A stretch of DNA of 46,534 bases from positions 1 to 46,534 of the IMG/VR virus record IMGVR_UViG_3300020603_000032; one strand, 5' to 3'. The DNA comes from a virus. Positions 1 to 42,988 of this stretch are shown here, in pieces; the stretch's first letter is position 1; each line of letters starts with the position of its first letter. A program made the translations under genes and the position numbers. Below the pieces are notes generated by a model. The model made no database searches and was not told where the DNA came from. It was given only the letters and a program-made list of their open reading frames with translations.

Positions 1-3000
1 TCATCTGGTGAGGCTGCAATCCCAGTCAGGGTTACAGAAGCAGCAGATCTTGGTGCATTCAATGCAGAAGATCCGGTAGTAGCTGCAAATCGCGCAGCGA
101 AGGCTCAAGGATGGGAAAGTAATGCACAGAAAACAGAAGCAATAGCAAGCCAAGGAGAAAATGTTACGCCAGATCAATGGCGGCGCTTGAGTACGTTTAT
201 TCCAAAACCAAATCAACAAGGTATTACTTTTAAAGACCTGAGTGGTAAGCGCATTACCGATTGGGTTTCGGATTACTATGCGCAACAATTCAGCGATGCA
301 GGAATTGCGCAAAACGCTATTAATGTAGTAAATCAGGAACAAGTTAACGATCTCAACAGTCGCTTGGGTGCGCTTCAATCTGCATATCTTAACGAGTCTT
401 TGCAAGCACTTAACAGAGGAACAATTACCGAAGACGACTTCCGCAGTGACGCCGAAGCAGCGGGAGTTAAATCCGAGCTTATTACGCAAGTTTTGGATAT
501 TGCCAAGAGTGCAGAGAATAAAGCCAAACAGGTAACAACAATTGTTAACGAACTGACAAAACCTGATTCAACGTTGAGTTGGACGGATGCTGCGCAACGT
601 CTTAGAACGTCAGGATTTTCGGAGCGTGAGATTGGAGATTTGCAAGACAGTTTAGCCGATGAGTTTTCACAAGCCGCGGCATTTCGTGGTCGGATAGATC
701 AGGTTATTGGCGATTACACTGCATTCAAGAGCAACCTTAGTAGAGAAGGTGCTCTGGAACGCATGGTACTTGCGGGTTCAAGTTCAGAGGATGCCAATCG
801 AATTTTGAATAGTGTGGATTATGACGTTGCTGCGCAACGTAACCGGATTGCGATTGCCGAGGATGCAGCGCAACAGTTGGCTCAAGGCAATAAAGACTTT
901 ACCGAGGCAAGGGTTACGCAGCTTTTGAAAGAGGCGGGATTTCCAGCCAAGGTACAGAATGACCTGATCATGTACGCCAGGGGCGTGCAGGAAGGCCGCA
1001 ATCCCACGCCTGGTGAAGTGGAGCTTGCTGCGGTCTATGCACCGCGTACAGACGGGTTTGTGGCCATTGGCGGGGGTTACCTTGCAAGGTTTGCCCAAGC
1101 CGAAGATAAAACGCTTGGATTGGCGCAAGTAAAAGATTACTCAGGCAAGGATGTAACCAAAGCATTTTTTGATTCAACGACGAACAAAATTATTCTTCCA
1201 AGCGATGTTCCAAGGGTGACGGTTCGTGCAAGATTACAACCGACACTTGATGTGCAAAAAACGACAAATAGTAGCCGAGTGGATATTTCGGATGCCACAG
1301 CACATGATCTAAAAGTGATGAGCACACCTTTGGGTTATGACAGTTATACGAGAACAACTGCCAGACCTATGGCATGGCCCGAATTCCGAGAAGTAATGAA
1401 AGAACTCGGCGTAGATCCGAAAACTATGCCTGGAAGATATAGCTCATATCTTATGGTGCAAGCTGCGTGGAGTCAGTCAGGAAATTTAAGAAGTACTCTA
1501 CCTTTTGAAATTGCAGGCACATCGCCGATGCAAATGGATCTTAGAGTACAGCCCACGTATCAGGGCGTTTTAGATAACGTAAAACAGGCAATTACAGCAG
1601 CAGGCACCGTTCAGTCTCCAGCACAAGCCGTCATTTCAAATTTAGTTGGGGTAACTATAGGAACAATTGCAGGTATGACGGCTGGAGTAACCGGAGATGT
1701 ATTAGGAGATTCAGAAAATATAATTTCAAGAAATTTGCGCATGATTGCGGATATTTCATCTACAGCGAGCAGGGCGGCGTTGCCAAACACTTATGCAAAA
1801 TTAGACAAGCTAGGTCAAGATGTTGACAGCGCCAAGGGTCTTGATAAAGTTATTGTTGCTGCCAAAGCAATAATTAATGCTCCGGATGCGGTTGCGTTGT
1901 ATATGGGAAATGAGACGGCTGAAGAATTAGCTCCTTTTGGGCTAGCGTTAAAACTATTAAGGAGCGGAGGTGTTGGGGCTGCTGCGGCTGGAAGTGTATT
2001 TTACAATTTTGCAGAATCATATGGGCTTACAGCAGAAGACGAGGGTAAATTTCTTCGACAAACTGGACTTTTTACGGGAGAACAAATTGCACAAATAACA
2101 AGGCCTGGAGCGTTTGCGGTTGCTAGTGTAGAGGGTGTAGTAGATCCATTGATACAAATACCTGTGGTGCAAGCACTTTTAGGAAGAGTCAATGCAAGCA
2201 CAGATGTGGGGGCATCGGTGCTAGCACAAATACGTAATGTTGGTAAAACCGGAACAAAAGCGGGATTGGGAGAAAGCGGGTCTGAAGGCCTTTCGTCAAG
2301 TGCTCAAGCAATATTTTCACAAGTCGCTCCCGGAGATCCATATAATGCTTTTGGAACGGGAGCCGTGTTTGGATTCCTTGGTGGTAAAGGTACTGCTGTA
2401 ACCTTTTCGGCTCTTGATATGAGTCGTATACAACCTGTGCTTGAGGTATTAGATCGAGAAATACGGGCAGGAGAAGACCTAGGAATCAGTGTAAGGAAGG
2501 CTTTTGAAGATGCAGTAGATGTAGAGGTTTTGCCACCACAAAGTTTTGCCGCAATCGCATCAACAGCCCTTACTGTTGCGCCTGAACAAAAAACAAAAAT
2601 ATTTGAAAATTTAATGGATATTTCGAGATCATATGACATTACTGCGGCGCTTCCAGCGGTGCTTAATGCTGCGTTGGGAGTTCCAAGTCCGCAAGATTTG
2701 CAATTTATAGATGCCGCCGTCGGTTCCATGCTTGGGCAAAATATTAATCCGGAAACCATCACACGGTCGCTTATTGACACCGGCATAGCTCCAGAGGTGA
2801 TTGTTTCTTCAGTTGCAAACACCACAAAAGACCCGTCATCGGTAGCCCAGAGCATCACGATTGTGCAGGATTCTGGGCTTGATATTGCACCGCAAACGAT
2901 TGCAAGCAGTCTTTATCAATCGGGTAGTGACACCACCAATGTGGTCAACACGCTTTTGCAGCAAAGTGGTTCATCGGCAAGTGAAGCGACCAATCTTGCA

Positions 3001-4341
3001 ATTTCAGAAGGCATAAAGTCGGGGAAAAGTTTTGAAACTGCGCTAGGAGAGGTTTCACAAGCGGTTCGTAGTTTTGGCACCCTAGGCGCAGACAATAGCA
3101 ATGTACTTTTGCAAATTGCTTCTGGAGCATCGCAAGCAGCCACGGGCGCGAATGTCAGTCCAGAAGTGCTATCGCTTGCATTGGTGGCAAATAACCTGCC
3201 AAATGTGGGAGCAACACCTACAGGCACTCCAGTAACCACTACTCCAGTAACTACTACTCCAGTAACCACCACTCCAGAAACCACTACTCCGGTAACTACT
3301 ACGCCAGTAACCACCACTCCAGAAACCACTACTCCAGTAACCACCACTCCAGAAACCACTACTCCAGTAACCACCACTCCAGTAACTACTACTCCGGTAA
3401 CTACTACTCCGGTAACTACTACTCCGGTAACTGAAACCCCAGTAACCACCACTCCAGAAACCACTACTCCAGTAACCACCACTCCAGAAACCACTACTCC
3501 AGTAACCACCACTCCAGTAACTACTACTCCGGTAACTACTACTCCGGTAACTACTACTCCAGTAACTACCACTCCAGAAACCACTACTCCGGTAACTACC
3601 ACTCCAGAAACCACTACTCCGGTAACTACCACTCCAGAAACCACTACTCCGGTAACTACCACTCCGGTAACTACTACTCCAGAAACCACTACTCCAGTAA
3701 CTACTACTCCGGTAACTGAAACCCCAGTAACCACCACTCCGGTAACTACCACTCCGGTAACTACCACTCCGGTAACTGAAACCCCAGTAACTACCACTCC
3801 GGTAACTGAAACCCCAGTAACTACTACGCCAGAAACCACTACTCCAGTAACTACTACTCCGGTAACTGAAACCCCGGTGTATACGGAGACGCCTACAGTA
3901 CCACCGACGGTTCCCCCTACAGTGCCATCGACTCCGGTAGTTACGGAAACTCCAGTAGTTACTGAAACTCCGATTACTCCTCCAACAGTTCCTCCGACAG
4001 TTCCTCCTACAGTACCACCGACGACTCCGCCAACTACTTCGCCAAAAGCTCCTACGCCAAAGCCCCCATCAACATTACCACTTGTACAATTTCCAGAGCG
4101 GCCACAAGTTGTGCCACAACTTCCTGGAATCTTTCCAATGTTTTATTATGGGAAAGACTTTGGGACGAAACCGCAAAAACTTAGCCCGGAAGGCGTGTTG
4201 ATAAATCAAACGTATAAACCGCTAAGCGTGGTAATGCCTGGGGCAGAACTCCCTGAGCCAGAAGAAATAAGCGAATTGGCAGAATTTTACCAAAACAGGG
4301 ATACGACTTTTGAAGATATATTGAATATGTTAAGGGGATAA
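1..4341 (+). CDS. Large virion-associated protein with Thr/Pro repeats, 5' end outside window
   Basis: The frame is open from base 1, so the gene begins upstream and at least 1446 codons are present. The TTG at 187 is only the first start-like codon inside the window. The N-terminal two thirds is Ala/Ser/Gln-rich, mostly helical in character, with small-residue hydrophobic stretches (for example around 1630-1700) that could insert into membranes. A long Thr-Pro-Val/Glu repeat tract follows (3226-3876), then Pro-rich VPPT/TPP segments and a C-terminal domain rich in aromatic residues that ends before the TAA. It is first in a rightward run of giant late genes, and the next gene starts 3 bp after its stop. 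Size, repeats and position suggest an internal virion, ejection or fibre-type protein. I recognise no enzymatic domain. Confidence 0.85.
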   Translation, partial: SSGEAAIPVRVTEAADLGAFNAEDPVVAANRAAKAQGWESNAQKTEAIASQGENVTPDQWRRLSTFIPKPNQQGITFKDLSGKRITDWVSDYYAQQFSDAGIAQNAINVVNQEQVNDLNSRLGALQSAYLNESLQALNRGTITEDDFRSDAEAAGVKSELITQVLDIAKSAENKAKQVTTIVNELTKPDSTLSWTDAAQRLRTSGFSEREIGDLQDSLADEFSQAAAFRGRIDQVIGDYTAFKSNLSREGALERMVLAGSSSEDANRILNSVDYDVAAQRNRIAIAEDAAQQLAQGNKDFTEARVTQLLKEAGFPAKVQNDLIMYARGVQEGRNPTPGEVELAAVYAPRTDGFVAIGGGYLARFAQAEDKTLGLAQVKDYSGKDVTKAFFDSTTNKIILPSDVPRVTVRARLQPTLDVQKTTNSSRVDISDATAHDLKVMSTPLGYDSYTRTTARPMAWPEFREVMKELGVDPKTMPGRYSSYLMVQAAWSQSGNLRSTLPFEIAGTSPMQMDLRVQPTYQGVLDNVKQAITAAGTVQSPAQAVISNLVGVTIGTIAGMTAGVTGDVLGDSENIISRNLRMIADISSTASRAALPNTYAKLDKLGQDVDSAKGLDKVIVAAKAIINAPDAVALYMGNETAEELAPFGLALKLLRSGGVGAAAAGSVFYNFAESYGLTAEDEGKFLRQTGLFTGEQIAQITRPGAFAVASVEGVVDPLIQIPVVQALLGRVNASTDVGASVLAQIRNVGKTGTKAGLGESGSEGLSSSAQAIFSQVAPGDPYNAFGTGAVFGFLGGKGTAVTFSALDMSRIQPVLEVLDREIRAGEDLGISVRKAFEDAVDVEVLPPQSFAAIASTALTVAPEQKTKIFENLMDISRSYDITAALPAVLNAALGVPSPQDLQFIDAAVGSMLGQNINPETITRSLIDTGIAPEVIVSSVANTTKDPSSVAQSITIVQDSGLDIAPQTIASSLYQSGSDTTNVVNTLLQQSGSSASEATNLAISEGIKSGKSFETALGEVSQAVRSFGTLGADNSNVLLQIASGASQAATGANVSPEVLSLALVANNLPNVGATPTGTPVTTTPVTTTPVTTTPETTTPVTTTPVTTTPETTTPVTTTPETTTPVTTTPVTTTPVTTTPVTTTPVTETPVTTTPETTTPVTTTPETTTPVTTTPVTTTPVTTTPVTTTPVTTTPETTTPVTTTPETTTPVTTTPETTTPVTTTPVTTTPETTTPVTTTPVTETPVTTTPVTTTPVTTTPVTETPVTTTPVTETPVTTTPETTTPVTTTPVTETPVYTETPTVPPTVPPTVPSTPVVTETPVVTETPITPPTVPPTVPPTVPPTTPPTTSPKAPTPKPPSTLPLVQFPERPQVVPQLPGIFPMFYYGKDFGTKPQKLSPEGVLINQTYKPLSVVMPGAELPEPEEISELAEFYQNRDTTFEDILNMLRG
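3226..3876 (+). repeat. Coding hexapeptide repeats TTTPVT / TTTPET
   Basis: About 36 tandem 18-bp units encode Thr-Thr-Thr-Pro-(Val/Glu)-Thr, with occasional Thr-Glu-Thr variants. Codons alternate freely between ACT and ACC and between CCA and CCG, so the amino acid pattern is kept while the DNA drifts. The tract resembles mucin-like extended linkers and probably forms a stiff spacer in the protein. Confidence 0.95.
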
Positions 4342-20957: not shown

Positions 20958-21395
20958 TTATGCTTCCCATAAAAGTTTTTGACCTCGCAATAAAGCATCG
21001 GTATCAATCCTCGGTCGCGATGTCGTATTCCAATTGCCCCCCCCGCGCAATCCTATGCATTTCCAATTTGATGCTCGCAAAGACGCGCCGCCTTCTCCAG
21101 GCAATGTGTAGGTAATTAATCGCCGATACCCCAAGGCTTTTGCAGCTCGCCATGCGGCAGAATAAAGCATTGAACATGCATTCTTTGTCCCATCAGTACA
21201 ACATCGATTGACTTCAAGGGTCCAACCATCATCGAGCAATCGGGCTACGGGCCGACCAACAATAGCAACGCCAACCACTTTGTCTTCGGATACGGCCACG
21301 CAGAATTTGCAACCGGGCATGGGTTTGTGATGCCGATGATGAATGGCCACAAAAGCATTTGCTTCATCCAAATTAATTGGGGTAATTTCCATCAT
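20958..21395 (-). CDS. XF1762-like / GNAT-like phage protein
   Basis: About 145 residues. MEITPINLDEANAFVAIHHR, KFCVAVSEDKVVGVAIVGRP, EVNRCCTDGTKNACSMLYSA and LGYRRLITYTLPGEGGASLR match the pattern of XF1762-type proteins, short phage and prophage proteins with an acetyltransferase-like (GNAT) core. A substrate has not been established. Two consecutive ATGs (21395 and 21392) are the likely start; no strong Shine-Dalgarno precedes them. The gene is separated by only a base or two from the next one in the leftward cluster. Confidence 0.8.
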   Translation of the reverse strand: MMEITPINLDEANAFVAIHHRHHKPMPGCKFCVAVSEDKVVGVAIVGRPVARLLDDGWTLEVNRCCTDGTKNACSMLYSAAWRAAKALGYRRLITYTLPGEGGASLRASNWKCIGLRGGGNWNTTSRPRIDTDALLRGQKLLWEA

Positions 21396-21412
21396 TATCA
21401 ATCATGTTTCGC

Positions 21413-21655: not shown

Positions 21656-21755
21656 CGTCCTTTCCTGTGCTTCATTTAGTTTCATGGGGTTCATAGCTTA
21701 AATGGATTATTAAACATCGATTTAGGGACGGTAATGCGATCCTAATAGCCTGGTT

Positions 21756-22970
21756 GTTTCAATCTAGGGTGATGGTTCTCTCTCTGGGGCTGTTTCAATC
21801 TAGGATCATGGTTCTCTCAACGGCATCGTTTCAATCATCGCGCATGGTTTTCTCGTATATCCGGTTTCAATCTGTCCGGCTGGTGCTCTATCGGCCAATG
21901 TTTCAATCTAAGGGCGTGGTGCTCTCCATGGAACTGTTTCAATCTGCGGGCGTGGTGCTCTACCGTCAAGTGTTTCAATCTCATCAAGTGGTGCTCTCTT
22001 GCCGGGTGTTTCAATCTGGACGATTGGTGCTCTCAGTTCGCGTGTTTCAATCCTTCAGCTTGGTGTTCTCAAGGCAGGCGTTTCAATCTACATGTATGGG
22101 GCGCTCTGAGCGTGTGTTTCAATCTTGGTCACTGGTACTCTTGGAGATGGTGTTTCAATCTTTTGCTCTGGTGCTCTCTTTTATGGTGTTTCAATCTCAA
22201 GACGTGGTGCTCTCCGATCAATTGTTTCAATCATCGCCAATGGTGCTCTCGGTTTCAGTGTTTCAATCGATCAGCTTGGTTCTCTCACCGAGAGTGTTTC
22301 AATCGTTGAACTTGGTACTCTCGCCGTGGAGGTTTCAATCTTCAAAAGTGGTGTTCTCTTCGGAGCTGTTTCAATCCGCTCAAATGGTGCTCTCGGTTTT
22401 ATTGTTTCAATCTTTTCGAATGGTGCTCTCATGCGCTGTGTTTCAATCTGTCTATATGGTACGCTCGTGGAGCGTGTTTCAATCTGCTTGAGTGGTGCTC
22501 TCGTGGATCGTGTTTCAATCTGCTGGAGTGGTGCTCTCGTGGATCGTGTTTCAATCTGCTGGAGTGGTGCTCTCCCTAACGGTGTTTCGATCTTTCGATC
22601 TGGTGCTCTCGGGCGTTTTGTTTCAAACGCCATATATGGTGCTCTTGTTTCAATCTAAAGCTTTGGAACTCTCTTGGCTGATGTTTCAATCCAACAAAGT
22701 GGTGCTCTCTCAGCACTTGTTTCAATCTGCTTGAGTGGTGCTCTCCCGATAACTGTTTCAATCTAATGCGTTGGTGCTCTCCCGTTAAGTGTTTCAATCT
22801 CGACCATTGGTGCTCTCGTGGTCGTTGTTTCAATCTGGCCGATTGGTGCTCTCGTTGTCGTTGTCTCAATCCTGCTCTGTGGTGCTCTCGGTAACAGTGT
22901 TTCAATCTCTGTTTGTGGTGCGCTCCATAGCACTGTTTCAATCTGGGGATATGGCGCTCTCCTATCTGAT
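21756..22970. repeat. Array of 34 tandem 36-bp units with two conserved boxes and two variable segments
   Basis: Every unit has the form GTTTCAATC (box A), 8 nt, TGGTGCTCTC (box B), 9 nt. Box A is exact in 31 of 34 units and box B exact in 18, with its TGG constant in all. The two inner segments differ in almost every unit, apart from a T that usually follows box A and a T that usually precedes the next one. Period is exactly 36 bp except at 22620-22646, where the unit lacks its last 9 nt. No frame is open across the whole array on the plus strand: TGA in units 21 and 28 breaks one frame, and TAG or TAA in units 1, 2, 5, 26 and 29 breaks another. The minus frames I inspected are also interrupted, so the array is non-coding. 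Segments do not pair with each other inside a unit. It is not a CRISPR array: spacers are far too short. Confidence 0.96.
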
Positions 22971-22973
22971 GTT

Positions 22974-23780
22974 TTAATGAGGCGGAGGAATAAAGTGGGC
23001 GTGATTCAAATGCGCAATCGCGTAAGGCAACGGAGGCGGGGTATTGAAATGCCGCTGATACCACTCTCCATGCAGGTGGGAGAGGAAAAGCTTTACAGCG
23101 TAACGTCGGGCACGGGCATCAAGTTGTGCAGGAGGCAGCAATCCCGATGAGTAAGACTTGTATGCATCGGTGGTTTTTCCAAACCTCCCGGATTCTGCAA
23201 TAGAAATTGCAAGCTCGCGATTGGCACCAGATTCATTTCGTGAAACCTCGTATTCTTTTCTTTGTTTGTAAACGTGTCCATAAAAACAGTCATCCCGGTT
23301 GGAAAATTTCATGAAAGACTGCCCAATTTTCCAGCATAAAGACTTGAGGCGAGCATTCCACGGGCGTATCTCACCTTTGCGCCAAGAGGTCGTAGGGTCC
23401 AAACCCGCAAAGCGCCAGATGTGCCCAACCGTGGGGGCTTTTTCGATGTTGATGTGTGCCAGCAATCCGGCAGAAATGACAGGACCGATCCCATAGACCT
23501 CCCGTGCCCAGCCTCCCATGATATGAGATTGTGTGTATGCGTTAAGCGCTTTCCGTATTTCTTCTTCGAGCGTAGAGGTTTGGAGAGTCAGCCAGCCGAT
23601 GACGCTGCTAGGCTCTCCGGTTTTTGTGAGAGCGCGAACCTGATTGCCTCCACGTTTGCGATCCTCTTGTGCGATATAGTAGTAGTCAACCAGAAACCGG
23701 ACTTCGCGAGCGGTGAGTGTTTTGGCCGCCAACTTTAAGTCTTTGGTTAGTTTTTGCAACGATTCCATGTTAGATTCCAT
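22974..23780 (-). CDS. IS110-type transposase C-terminal-domain protein (Transposase_20-like), no DEDD domain
   Basis: 268 residues. Residues 97-128 (GIGPVISAGLLAHI to RFAGLDP) and 129-156 (TTSWRKGE, NARLKSLCWKIGQSF) follow the helix-hairpin-helix Transposase_20 domain of IS110 recombinases, whose IS621 member is guided by a bridge RNA. The N-terminal 90 residues are helical and show no DEDD RuvC-like catalytic pattern. A serine (S132) lies in the region where IS110 enzymes carry functional serines, but I cannot align it with certainty. The C-terminus is His/Pro-rich. The start has GGAG six bases upstream. The stop codon lies inside a degenerate box A of the array, so the array is directly in its 3' untranslated region. 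No terminal inverted repeats or IS ends are seen. Confidence 0.8.
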   Translation of the reverse strand: MESNMESLQKLTKDLKLAAKTLTAREVRFLVDYYYIAQEDRKRGGNQVRALTKTGEPSSVIGWLTLQTSTLEEEIRKALNAYTQSHIMGGWAREVYGIGPVISAGLLAHINIEKAPTVGHIWRFAGLDPTTSWRKGEIRPWNARLKSLCWKIGQSFMKFSNRDDCFYGHVYKQRKEYEVSRNESGANRELAISIAESGRFGKTTDAYKSYSSGLLPPAQLDARARRYAVKLFLSHLHGEWYQRHFNTPPPLPYAIAHLNHAHFIPPPH

Positions 23781-24211: not shown

Positions 24212-24418
24212 ATGGAGGAAAAGACGAGGCTCTTTGGCTCGGTCAAGGATGAGTCATGGACCCGGCACGACCCAGAGGCGAAGGCAAGGAAGGTCTTTGA
24301 GTCGCTTCTCAGGATTCCTGGGGAGTGGGATGGACGAAAGTATGTGACGAAAAACATACAAACGTACTGGCGTTGGTTCAGGTTAGGCTGGCAAATGAGG
24401 GGGCACAATGAACATTGA
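24212..24418 (+). CDS. Small protein at the head of the replication operon
   Basis: 68 residues starting at the ATG that follows AGGAGGTTGAC. The sequence (MEEKTRLFGSVKDESWTRHD to GRKYVTKNIQTYWRWFRLGW) is basic and aromatic at its C-terminus. Its stop overlaps the ParB-like start by 11 bp. I do not recognise it; its place suggests an accessory DNA-binding or regulatory role in replication. Confidence 0.7.
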   Translation: MEEKTRLFGSVKDESWTRHDPEAKARKVFESLLRIPGEWDGRKYVTKNIQTYWRWFRLGWQMRGHNEH

Positions 24419-25139
24419 TCAGATCACCATTGATGGGGGAACGCAAAGTCGGTCCAGGATCAACGAAGAGACGGTTGCGGACTATGCGGAGGCGATTTTG
24501 CAGGGCGCATGTTTCCCGCCGATCATTGTATACTTTGATGGCATAAAAAACTATCTTGCAGATGGTTTCCACCGTTACTTTGCACATAAGCGTGCGAAAA
24601 GAAAGGAAATTGTTGCGGAAGTCGTGTCGGGGACGCTTCGGGATGCGGTGCTCCACTCGCTTGGGGCCAACGCACTTCATGGTCTGCGGCGAACCAACGA
24701 CGACAAACGTAACAGCGTGTTCATCATGTTGGAGGACGTAGAGTGGAGTGACTGGTCGGATGCGGAGATCGCACGGCTGTGCCATGTCTCGCACCCCTTT
24801 GTTGCAAAATTGCGAAAAGAGCAAAAGCAGACCAAGGTTGTGAAAAAATTCCAACACAAGAGTGGTAAAGTTACCACAATGAAGGTGAACAAGGAGGAGG
24901 TCGAAGACGACATCAAGCACGATGTAATCAATGTTTTGCACCAAGAGAACGAAGAGTTGAAGACGCAGTTGGCGACTTCAAAGCTGGAGTTTCCTGAGGG
25001 TGTAGACGCAGAAACGATAATTCGTCAGCTTCGGGAGGAGATTCGTTTGTTGAAGATTGAGAACGAAGCGCTGAGGCTGAGCCGCGATCAATTTCAGGAT
25101 GAGAATGCTCAATTGAAACGACAGATTAGGAGGAAGTAA
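24408..25139 (+). CDS. ParB/Spo0J-like nuclease-domain protein
   Basis: 243 residues. The N-terminal 90 residues have the ParB layout: IDGGTQSRSRINEETVADYA, FPPIIVYFDGIKNYLADGFH followed by RYFAH, and a small HTH-like part with WSDAEIARLCHVSHPFVAKL. The C-terminal third is a coiled coil (LREEIRLLKIENEALRLSRD). Phage ParB-like proteins bind DNA and may hydrolyse CTP or cut DNA; they often start operons with replication genes. The ATG follows GAGGGGGCACA. The stop overlaps the next start (TAATG). Confidence 0.85.
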   Translation: MNIDQITIDGGTQSRSRINEETVADYAEAILQGACFPPIIVYFDGIKNYLADGFHRYFAHKRAKRKEIVAEVVSGTLRDAVLHSLGANALHGLRRTNDDKRNSVFIMLEDVEWSDWSDAEIARLCHVSHPFVAKLRKEQKQTKVVKKFQHKSGKVTTMKVNKEEVEDDIKHDVINVLHQENEELKTQLATSKLEFPEGVDAETIIRQLREEIRLLKIENEALRLSRDQFQDENAQLKRQIRRK

Positions 25140-35513: not shown

Positions 35514-36623
35514 ATGATCTATCATAGTGACCTTAAATTTTTTACGCCGCAAGAATGCGAGGAGCTTGTACAAGAATTTTTTACACTCCGGCATTTTGAT
35601 GAAAATCAATCTCCGGAGTTTTATAAAAACAGCTATGGGTTTCAAAATCAACCAGGCTCATTAAAATATATAGACCGCGCACAGTCACTGCTCACCAGAT
35701 ATGATGATTTGATATTTGCAAACACTTACACAAGGTGCTATCAACGGCACAGTGTATTAAAAATACACACCGACAGAAAGGGTTTAGACGTAAGTTTATC
35801 AGTATGCCTTGAAGACAAAAATAATTTAGAGTGGCCGCTTAAGGTATCAACACAAGAGTTTACGGGCGAGACATGGGATTTTAACGAACGAAATTTCAAA
35901 GACATCCATGTGCAGGCGCATATTGGCGTAGGTTATGGGGCCGTGGTCGAGGGACGAAGATTTCCTCACTGGCGAGACGAGTTGTTGTGCGGCGAAAAAC
36001 AACGAGCAATCTATTTGTTCTTTCACTGGACGTTTTCAAAGAAAAAGATATTTGAATACAAAAATCAAATAGAGATAGAAGTATATAAAGACTTTATTAC
36101 CCCGGAAGAATGCCAAGAGTTAATTAACATGGCCGCGCCACAGTTGGTGCCATCCACCGTTATTGATTATGATACCGGCGCATCAAAAGACCACAAAGGC
36201 CGAACAAGCCAGCAGACATTCCTTAAAAGGCAGTCTACATTATTAATAAAAAAGTTGGAAAACAAAATAGCGCAATTTACGAATACGCCCGTACAAAATG
36301 GGGAAGATTTGCAAATTCTTAAATACGAACCGGGGCAGGAATATGAGCCGCACCACGATTTCTTTTTTGACAAAGACACCCAGGTTGTTAAGGCCACACA
36401 AAATGGCGGGCAGCGTGTGGCAACGATGCTGTTATATCTTAACACCCCGGTAGAAGGGGCGACAGAATTTCCCGAATTAAAAATCCGCGTACCGGCGATA
36501 CGTGGGCATGCTTTGTTATTCAGATATCCGGCTCAGGAGCGGGAGTCGTTACACGCGGGTACTCCTCCAAAATCGGTAAAGTGGGTGGCTACAAAATGGA
36601 TCAGAGAGGGAGAGTTTAAATGA
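35514..36623 (+). CDS. Two-domain 2-oxoglutarate/Fe(II) oxygenase (prolyl 4-hydroxylase-like)
   Basis: 369 residues. C-terminal domain (about 185-369): YEPGQEYEPHHDFFFDKD gives H280-x-D282, SLHAGTPP gives the distal His347, and VKWVATKWI the 2-oxoglutarate-binding Lys356; this is the P4H pattern. The N-terminal half repeats the theme: KIHTDRKGLDVSLSV supplies H85-x-D87 and RRFPHWRDEL supplies H152, with LFFHWTF at the end of the fold. Two oxygenase-like domains in one phage protein are uncommon. It sits between portal and GroES-like genes in the virion operon, so virion proteins or host factors may be substrates. Confidence 0.87.
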   Translation: MIYHSDLKFFTPQECEELVQEFFTLRHFDENQSPEFYKNSYGFQNQPGSLKYIDRAQSLLTRYDDLIFANTYTRCYQRHSVLKIHTDRKGLDVSLSVCLEDKNNLEWPLKVSTQEFTGETWDFNERNFKDIHVQAHIGVGYGAVVEGRRFPHWRDELLCGEKQRAIYLFFHWTFSKKKIFEYKNQIEIEVYKDFITPEECQELINMAAPQLVPSTVIDYDTGASKDHKGRTSQQTFLKRQSTLLIKKLENKIAQFTNTPVQNGEDLQILKYEPGQEYEPHHDFFFDKDTQVVKATQNGGQRVATMLLYLNTPVEGATEFPELKIRVPAIRGHALLFRYPAQERESLHAGTPPKSVKWVATKWIREGEFK

Positions 36624-42319: not shown

Positions 42320-42988
42320 ATGTATCTAACAAGCAGTATTCCGTATTTTAAATGCTGGGTAAGAAAGGAATTTACGAAAGGACATCAGGAGTACCACGGT
42401 GAATATTTACACGGTTTGGCGGTAGCGGTTACAACTATTCCGGATCGTTGTCTAGGGTTTCAGATTATTTTTTCTGGTTGTGAGGCAGATGATGGTAGCC
42501 AAGCGAATGTTCATGGTGGAGCAATGTGGGCAAGAATGCCCATCACGGCGTTGGTTGGAGACATACCGCTGGAAGCATGGCCTGAACGTATGCAAACCCA
42601 TCTTGCACAGCCTTGGGACTGTAATTCTTATCATCACACTGTCTTCAGTATTCAGCGCGCCAAGCCTTCTCCTTGGATATGCAAAATAAACAACGAGTTT
42701 TATACAGGAAGATATTTATTTACAGTAGATTATGCGGAAAGTGAAGTATCGGAAGATCCTTCGCAGCACAAACAAAGCCATGTATTGATGTTGACGGACG
42801 CGGGAAAATGGACTGGTAACATGGTTGCACTACCGAATAACCGTGTGCGTGTTACGAGTCCCGCCTATTGGGTGACGGGTGAAGGGGCACCAGATTTTCG
42901 ACCGAGCCAATGGATTCATTGTGCAGAGCAAGACGACTCTTACATGGATTCGGAAGTAACCTTCAACAACTTGTATAAGGAGCAGTAA
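42320..42988 (+). CDS. Conserved aquatic-phage protein of unknown function
   Basis: 222 residues. MYLTSSIPYFKCWVRKEFTK, GGAMWARMPITALVGD, MQTHLAQPWDCNSYHHTVF, GRYLFTVDYAE, HKQSHVLMLTDAGKWTGNMV and NRVRVTSPAYW are hallmarks of a family I associate with aquatic phages, always in the structural cluster. The many conserved Trp/His/Cys residues suggest an enzyme or globular protein, but no activity is known to me. Confidence 0.8.
   Translation: MYLTSSIPYFKCWVRKEFTKGHQEYHGEYLHGLAVAVTTIPDRCLGFQIIFSGCEADDGSQANVHGGAMWARMPITALVGDIPLEAWPERMQTHLAQPWDCNSYHHTVFSIQRAKPSPWICKINNEFYTGRYLFTVDYAESEVSEDPSQHKQSHVLMLTDAGKWTGNMVALPNNRVRVTSPAYWVTGEGAPDFRPSQWIHCAEQDDSYMDSEVTFNNLYKEQ

What the first reader, a model, noticed from the sequence alone, without database searches (positions are those of the whole stretch)
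21756..22970. 34-unit, 36-bp array with two conserved boxes and two variable segments per unit
Each unit is GTTTCAATC, 8 variable nt, TGGTGCTCTC, 9 variable nt. Box A is exact in 31 of 34 units and TGG of box B is constant, while the two intervening segments differ nearly everywhere. The frames I checked are all broken by stop codons somewhere in the array, so protein coding does not explain it. It is not a CRISPR array (spacers far too short), not ordinary iterons (those do not carry two unique segments per unit), and the segments do not pair with each other to form hairpins. Two short guide-like segments held in fixed register suggest a programmable or multi-target RNA or DNA element that I know of in no described system.
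Basis: seen in the sequence. Interest (0 to 1): 0.93.

Follow-up and report, generated by a model that had tools for sequence, protein, structure and literature searches.

The report
TIGR-TasA guide-RNA array in a phage
A phage genome carries a row of 34 short two-part guide RNAs next to the small protein that uses them, a complete example of the TIGR-Tas RNA-guided DNA-binding system described in 2025; the kind of system is known, but related phages show that the guides are conserved and that new guide pairs can arise by duplication inside the row.

Summary
The array is real: 33 units of 36 bp plus one of 27, exactly at 21756-22970. It belongs to a described system, TIGR-Tas (Faure et al. 2025, PMC12045711). 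Read on the minus strand, each unit is edge repeat GATTGAAACA, spacer A (8 nt), loop repeat GAGAGCACCA, spacer B (8 nt). The first edge repeat overlaps the stop codon of the adjacent gene (22974-23780, minus). That gene encodes a 268-aa protein without a nuclease domain. Its sequence matches solved TasH and TasR (E=5e-10 and 2e-9), and the top ten fold matches of its model are all TasH/TasR. Of 55 viral relatives, 50 carry 35-38-nt arrays beside the gene, with different repeats and spacers. Filing: TIGR-TasA, dual-repeat type.

Added here: spacers of homologous units are far more conserved than synonymous sites of tasA; a 99.9%-identical phage differs in array length by one 36-bp tandem copy that creates a new spacer pair; tasA occurs in otherwise unrelated phages. 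Target searches in about 3.4 Mb of phage DNA and six bacterial genomes found nothing above chance, so natural targets remain unknown.

The parts
21756..22970 (-). TIGR array: 34 units, consensus (minus strand) edge GATTGAAACA / spacer A 8 nt / loop GAGAGCACCA / spacer B 8 nt
22974..23780 (-). tasA, 268 aa, Nop-domain Tas protein without nuclease domain (phrog_4285 'transposase', weak PF02371)
22970..22979 (-). first, degenerate edge repeat (CATTAAAACA) overlapping the tasA stop codon, so tasA and array can share one transcript
22493..22564 (-). two perfect tandem 36-bp copies (22529-22564 and 22493-22528, each spacer B CTCCAGCA - edge - spacer A CGATCCAC - loop); a 99.9%-identical phage (G001) has one copy
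22620..22646 (-). 27-bp unit in which the edge repeat runs straight into the loop repeat: spacer A lost
21747..21764 (-). 3' end of the array: last edge repeat GATTGAAACA, then non-repeat sequence; no terminator-like site found, next minus-strand ORF starts at 21694

Best explanation
This is a phage-encoded TIGR-TasA system. The minus strand is transcribed from tasA through the array. The transcript is cut inside edge repeats into 36-nt dual-spacer tigRNAs, one per unit. A TasA dimer binds one tigRNA through the edge and loop repeats, and the two 8-nt spacers pair with opposite strands of a roughly 16-bp DNA target. With no nuclease domain, the complex most likely binds and bends DNA to block or regulate it rather than cut it. 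Shown here: the gene, its family and predicted fold, the array anatomy, its recurrence with different repeats in related phages, spacer conservation, and a one-unit copy-number change. Inferred from the studied TasA/TasR/TasH systems: transcription, processing, opposite-strand pairing and dimeric binding. Inferred only: that it silences or regulates rather than cuts, and what it targets.
For: TasA matches TasH (21kl, E=5.2e-10) and TasR (9mty, E=1.6e-9) by sequence; a 34-sequence profile matches 9mty at 2.2e-21. The AlphaFold model (mean pLDDT 87, pTM 0.83) finds ten PDB chains with E<=0.001, all TasH or TasR, followed by the IS621 bridge-RNA recombinase. The only named phage with a tblastn hit is Salicola phage CGphi29, the SpTasH source in PMC12045711, and its array has the same plan (edge AAGCGAGCCA). 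Of 55 viral relatives, 50 have 35-38-nt arrays near tasA with other edge/loop pairs. The paper's TIGR definition (two alternating 8-12-nt repeats, about 9-nt spacers with 16 nt total in SpTIGR, arrays upstream or downstream of tas, TasA = Nop domain alone) fits. Spacers of homologous units differ 0.6-13.5% per site where tasA fourfold sites differ 20-38%.
Against: No natural target was found in own, related or T4-like phage DNA or in six bacterial genomes with tasA. No rho-independent terminator was seen at the array end, although the paper reports one as typical. The edge repeat ends ACA while the loop ends CCA, so the box-C motif is only partly shared between the two repeats in this locus.
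Confidence: 0.95

Rival explanations
1. IS110/IS1111-type mobile element: the protein is a transposase and the array is a degenerate set of bridge RNAs used for recombination.
For: Weak Transposase_20 match (E=0.0015, below its cut-off), PHROG name 'transposase', and IS621 as the next-best fold.
Against: No IS110 DEDD-domain match in Pfam. All ten significant fold matches are Tas proteins, with IS621 at E=0.02. The units are 36-nt dual-repeat, not a single two-loop bridge RNA.
Confidence: 0.02
2. Protein-coding repeat: a 12-residue FQSxxxVVLSxx repeat read on the plus strand (ORF 21754-22491).
For: The plus frame is open for 245 codons and the unit length is divisible by three.
Against: In-frame stops occur inside spacers later in the array, and all other frames are broken. 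Relatives have 37-nt and irregular unit lengths. The array abuts tasA on the other strand in relatives too.
Confidence: 0.01
3. A decayed or decoy TIGR array: tasA is kept but most guides are non-functional repeat drift.
For: One unit lacks spacer A, some loop repeats carry changes, and no targets were found.
Against: TasA is intact and its family strongly conserved. In related phages homologous spacers are conserved well beyond synonymous sites, and unmatched units tend to be replaced whole rather than drifting. That selection evidence comes from relatives; in this phage only a near-identical genome was available for comparison.
Confidence: 0.02

Closest known systems
TIGR-TasA, dual-repeat type (Faure et al. 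2025, PMC12045711; FpTIGR from Flavonifractor plautii)
   Same: Solo Nop-domain protein beside an array of alternating edge/loop repeats with two short spacers per 36-nt unit, in a phage.
   Different: 34 units (5 to 15 most common in the paper); 8+8-nt spacers versus 9+9 in FpTIGR; no terminator seen; array sits in a run of minus-strand genes.
TIGR-TasH of Salicola phage CGphi29 (SpTIGR)
   Same: Closest named phage match (tblastn 37% over 82 aa); 16-nt total spacer; edge repeat of the same pattern (AAGCGAGCCA versus GATTGAAACA).
   Different: TasH carries an N-terminal HNH nuclease; here there is none.
TasA-TasParB operons (PMC12045711, fig. S14)
   Same: A ParB-like gene lies nearby (24408-25139).
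   Different: Here it is divergent, part of the helicase/primase module, and present in dozens of relatives that lack tas, so it is probably not a TIGR partner.
IS110 bridge-RNA recombinases; box C/D snoRNP Nop5
   Same: Nop-type RNA-binding fold; IS621 is the next fold hit.
   Different: No DEDD or fibrillarin-recruiting domain; array rather than single RNA.
CRISPR arrays
   Same: Repeat-spacer arrangement; box A resembles the GATTGAAAC end of some CRISPR repeats (from memory).
   Different: Two alternating short repeats, two 8-nt spacers; no Cas-like gene among the neighbours scanned.

Membership tests
TIGR-Tas | Tas protein with Nop domain, homologous to TasR/TasH | tested here: met
   phmmer E=5.2e-10 (TasH) and 1.6e-9 (TasR); profile E=2.2e-21; fold matches
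TIGR-Tas | Adjacent array of two alternating 8-12-nt repeats separated by two short spacers | tested here: met
   edge 10, spacer 8, loop 10, spacer 8, 34 units, starting at the tasA stop codon
TIGR-Tas | Repeats constant within a locus, different between loci | tested here: met
   six edge/loop groups in 50 of 55 relatives
TIGR-Tas | Box C/D end motifs shared between edge and loop repeats | tested here: inconclusive
   both start GA and end CA here (ACA versus CCA); L027 has CCC in both, SpTIGR and the GAGCGAGCCA group CCA in both; no formal covariation test
TIGR-Tas | Array begins and ends with truncated edge repeats, then a terminator | tested here: inconclusive
   first edge degenerate at the stop codon; last edge complete; no terminator-like site at the end
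TIGR-Tas | Processing into 36-nt tigRNAs bound by Tas | not testable with these tools
   needs small-RNA sequencing
TIGR-Tas | Spacers A and B pair with opposite strands of adjacent DNA sites | tested here: inconclusive
   no target excess over shuffled pairs or wrong geometries
TasA subtype | No HNH or RuvC domain | tested here: met
   268 aa; no nuclease match in Pfam; all-helical Nop-like model
IS110 family | DEDD catalytic domain plus Transposase_20 | tested here: not met
   no DEDD match; Transposase_20 below cut-off
CRISPR-Cas | Single repeat about 25-36 nt with spacers of similar size, plus cas genes | tested here: not met
   unit anatomy; no cas-family match among the adjacent genes in Pfam; one weak PHROG 'CRISPR/Cas system associated' match is to a phage exonuclease 3 kb away

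The most novel reading that the evidence does not exclude
Phage TIGR-TasA arrays are conserved guide libraries under purifying selection. They are inherited in order, with whole-unit replacement, and can gain new dual-spacer combinations by tandem duplication and recombination through the repeats rather than by capturing target DNA.
Probability: 0.4. Interest if true: 0.6.

Novelty: new member of a known kind. Interest (0 to 1): 0.4.

Why it matters
The TIGR-Tas paper leaves open how arrays arise and expand, what their natural targets are, and what nuclease-free TasA does. This lineage gives comparative material on the first point: a near-identical phage pair differing in array length by one unit, and a group of phages with collinear, strongly conserved guides. 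That makes guide selection and array growth directly testable. It does not add a new kind of system.

Tried and rejected
Targets: searched A + 0-2 nt + reverse-complement B (geometry derived from the paper's 8-nt 3' overhangs) with up to 2 mismatches in 1.23 Mb of Tas-bearing phages (580 unit pairs: 1 exact, 50 one-mismatch; shuffles 0-6 and 36-53) and in 1.26 Mb of other relatives. No excess. Five target patterns of the array in a Candidatus Propionivibrio contig gave no match in that genome or five others. The most widely shared guide matched 70 viral contigs against 28 for the wrong geometry, including 14 gp32-like genes of T4-like phages (gp32 identity is my reading of the sequence). A follow-up in 0.89 Mb of DNA around such genes showed no excess for the other 517 guides, so I treat the gp32 cluster as chance. 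Two further guides gave scattered or low-complexity hits. ParB-like neighbour as TIGR partner: rejected. Rfam: no match. IS110, CRISPR and coding readings: rejected above.

Full report
What is there. The exact pattern occurs 19 times against 0 for the reversed control. Every frame is interrupted somewhere. Per-position conservation on the minus strand gives edge repeat GATTGAAACA, an 8-nt spacer with at most 0.36 bit per position, loop repeat GAGAGCACCA and a second 8-nt spacer, of which only the last base is biased (A in 24 of 32). The 27-bp unit has lost spacer A.

Neighbour. The gene at 22974-23780 on the minus strand ends where the array begins; the first degenerate edge repeat contains its stop codon. 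Its 268-aa product is annotated by PHROGs as a transposase (phrog_4285, E=1e-49) but matches only part of Transposase_20, below the cut-off, and has no nuclease domain in Pfam. By sequence it matches TasH (5.2e-10) and TasR (1.6e-9) in the PDB, and as a family profile TasR at 2.2e-21. The predicted structure (pLDDT 87) has ten PDB matches with E<=0.001, all TasH or TasR; IS621 recombinase follows.

Literature. TIGR-Tas (Faure et al. 2025, PMC12045711) is defined as an array of alternating edge and loop repeats (8-12 nt) with two spacers of about 9 nt, next to a Nop-domain Tas protein; TasA is the solo-Nop form. Arrays are processed to 36-nt tigRNAs, and the spacers bind opposite DNA strands. 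Salicola phage CGphi29, the source of SpTasH, is the only named phage among 50,697 records with a match to our protein, and its array has the same plan.

Relatives. 55 viral loci encode relatives at 43-100% identity. In 50 of them a periodic array lies beside the gene; two of the other five are cut by contig ends. Edge/loop pairs differ by lineage: GAACGAGTCA/GAGAGAACCA, GAGCGAGCCA/GAGAGCACCA, GAGTGAACCC/GAGAGCACCC, GAATGAATCA/GATTAGTAACA and others. Several tasA-bearing phages (G019, G022, G023, G025, G031) share nothing else detectable with this phage among twelve proteins tested although TasA is about 58-64% identical, so the tasA gene moves between unrelated phages. Phages of this lineage with homologous neighbouring modules lack tasA and carry other genes between the equivalents of 19277 and 24179. 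The ParB-like gene at 24408 stays in those phages and is therefore probably not a TasParB partner.

Array evolution. Record G001 is 99.86% identical to the window over 32 kb with nine mismatches and one gap. That gap is in the array: the window has one extra perfect 36-bp tandem copy, which creates the spacer pair CGATCCAC/CTCCAGCA absent from G001. The direction of change is not known, and an assembly artefact is not excluded. In the phages with edge GAACGAGTCA, shared units occur in nearly the same order. For pairs whose tasA differs at 20-38% of fourfold sites, spacers of homologous units differ at 0.6-13.5% of sites (pairs with at least four homologous units). For L019 against L022 (31% at fourfold sites) 14 of 20 homologous units are identical, whereas a neutral 16-mer would be unchanged with probability 0.69^16, about 0.003. 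Flanks diverge by about 10-13% in the pairs compared. Units between conserved neighbours are mostly unrelated (9-15 of 16 mismatches) with a minority intermediate. Array exchange by recombination remains an alternative to purifying selection.

Targets. Using the geometry implied by the paper (A followed within 0-2 nt by reverse complement of B), no excess over shuffled pairs or wrong geometries was found in own and Tas-bearing phages, other relatives, or T4-like phage DNA. Six bacterial genomes gave no match to the five target patterns tried. A cluster of gp32-like genes matched by one widely shared guide was not supported by that follow-up. The six genomes are not established hosts, and the host of this phage is unknown.

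Verdict. A member of TIGR-Tas, TasA subtype, dual-repeat array.

Noticed in passing
21754-22491 (+): A 245-codon plus-strand ORF (FQSxxxVVLSxx repeats) runs through the array; automatic annotation would likely call a spurious repeat protein here.
   Followed up: partly
24408-25139 (+): ParB-like gene followed directly by a helicase and a primase-like gene; the ParB-helicase pair is conserved in dozens of viral relatives without tasA.
   Followed up: partly
20958-21401 (-): Mom-like DNA modification protein (phrog_1384, E=1.5e-41) in the same variable region as the TIGR locus; a relative (L170) has it at 85% identity without tasA.
   Followed up: partly
3226-3867: About 43 copies of a 15-bp repeat inside the 1384-aa ORF 187-4341, with an extensin-like Pfam match.
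   Followed up: no
35514-36623 (+) and 42320-42988 (+): 2OG-Fe(II) oxygenase-type gene between portal and head genes, and a gene matching a PHROG named ferredoxin.
   Followed up: no
L241 (NZ_FLQY01000364.1, Candidatus Propionivibrio aalborgensis): A bacterial genome contig with tasA (59%) and a six-unit upstream array whose edge repeat GAACGAGTCA is identical to that of one viral group; a possible host clue.
   Followed up: partly
L023, L024 and L044, compared with P0001: Some TasA relatives carry an insertion of about 50-60 residues between the WRYAGLDP and RPWN motifs (alignment A1).
   Followed up: no
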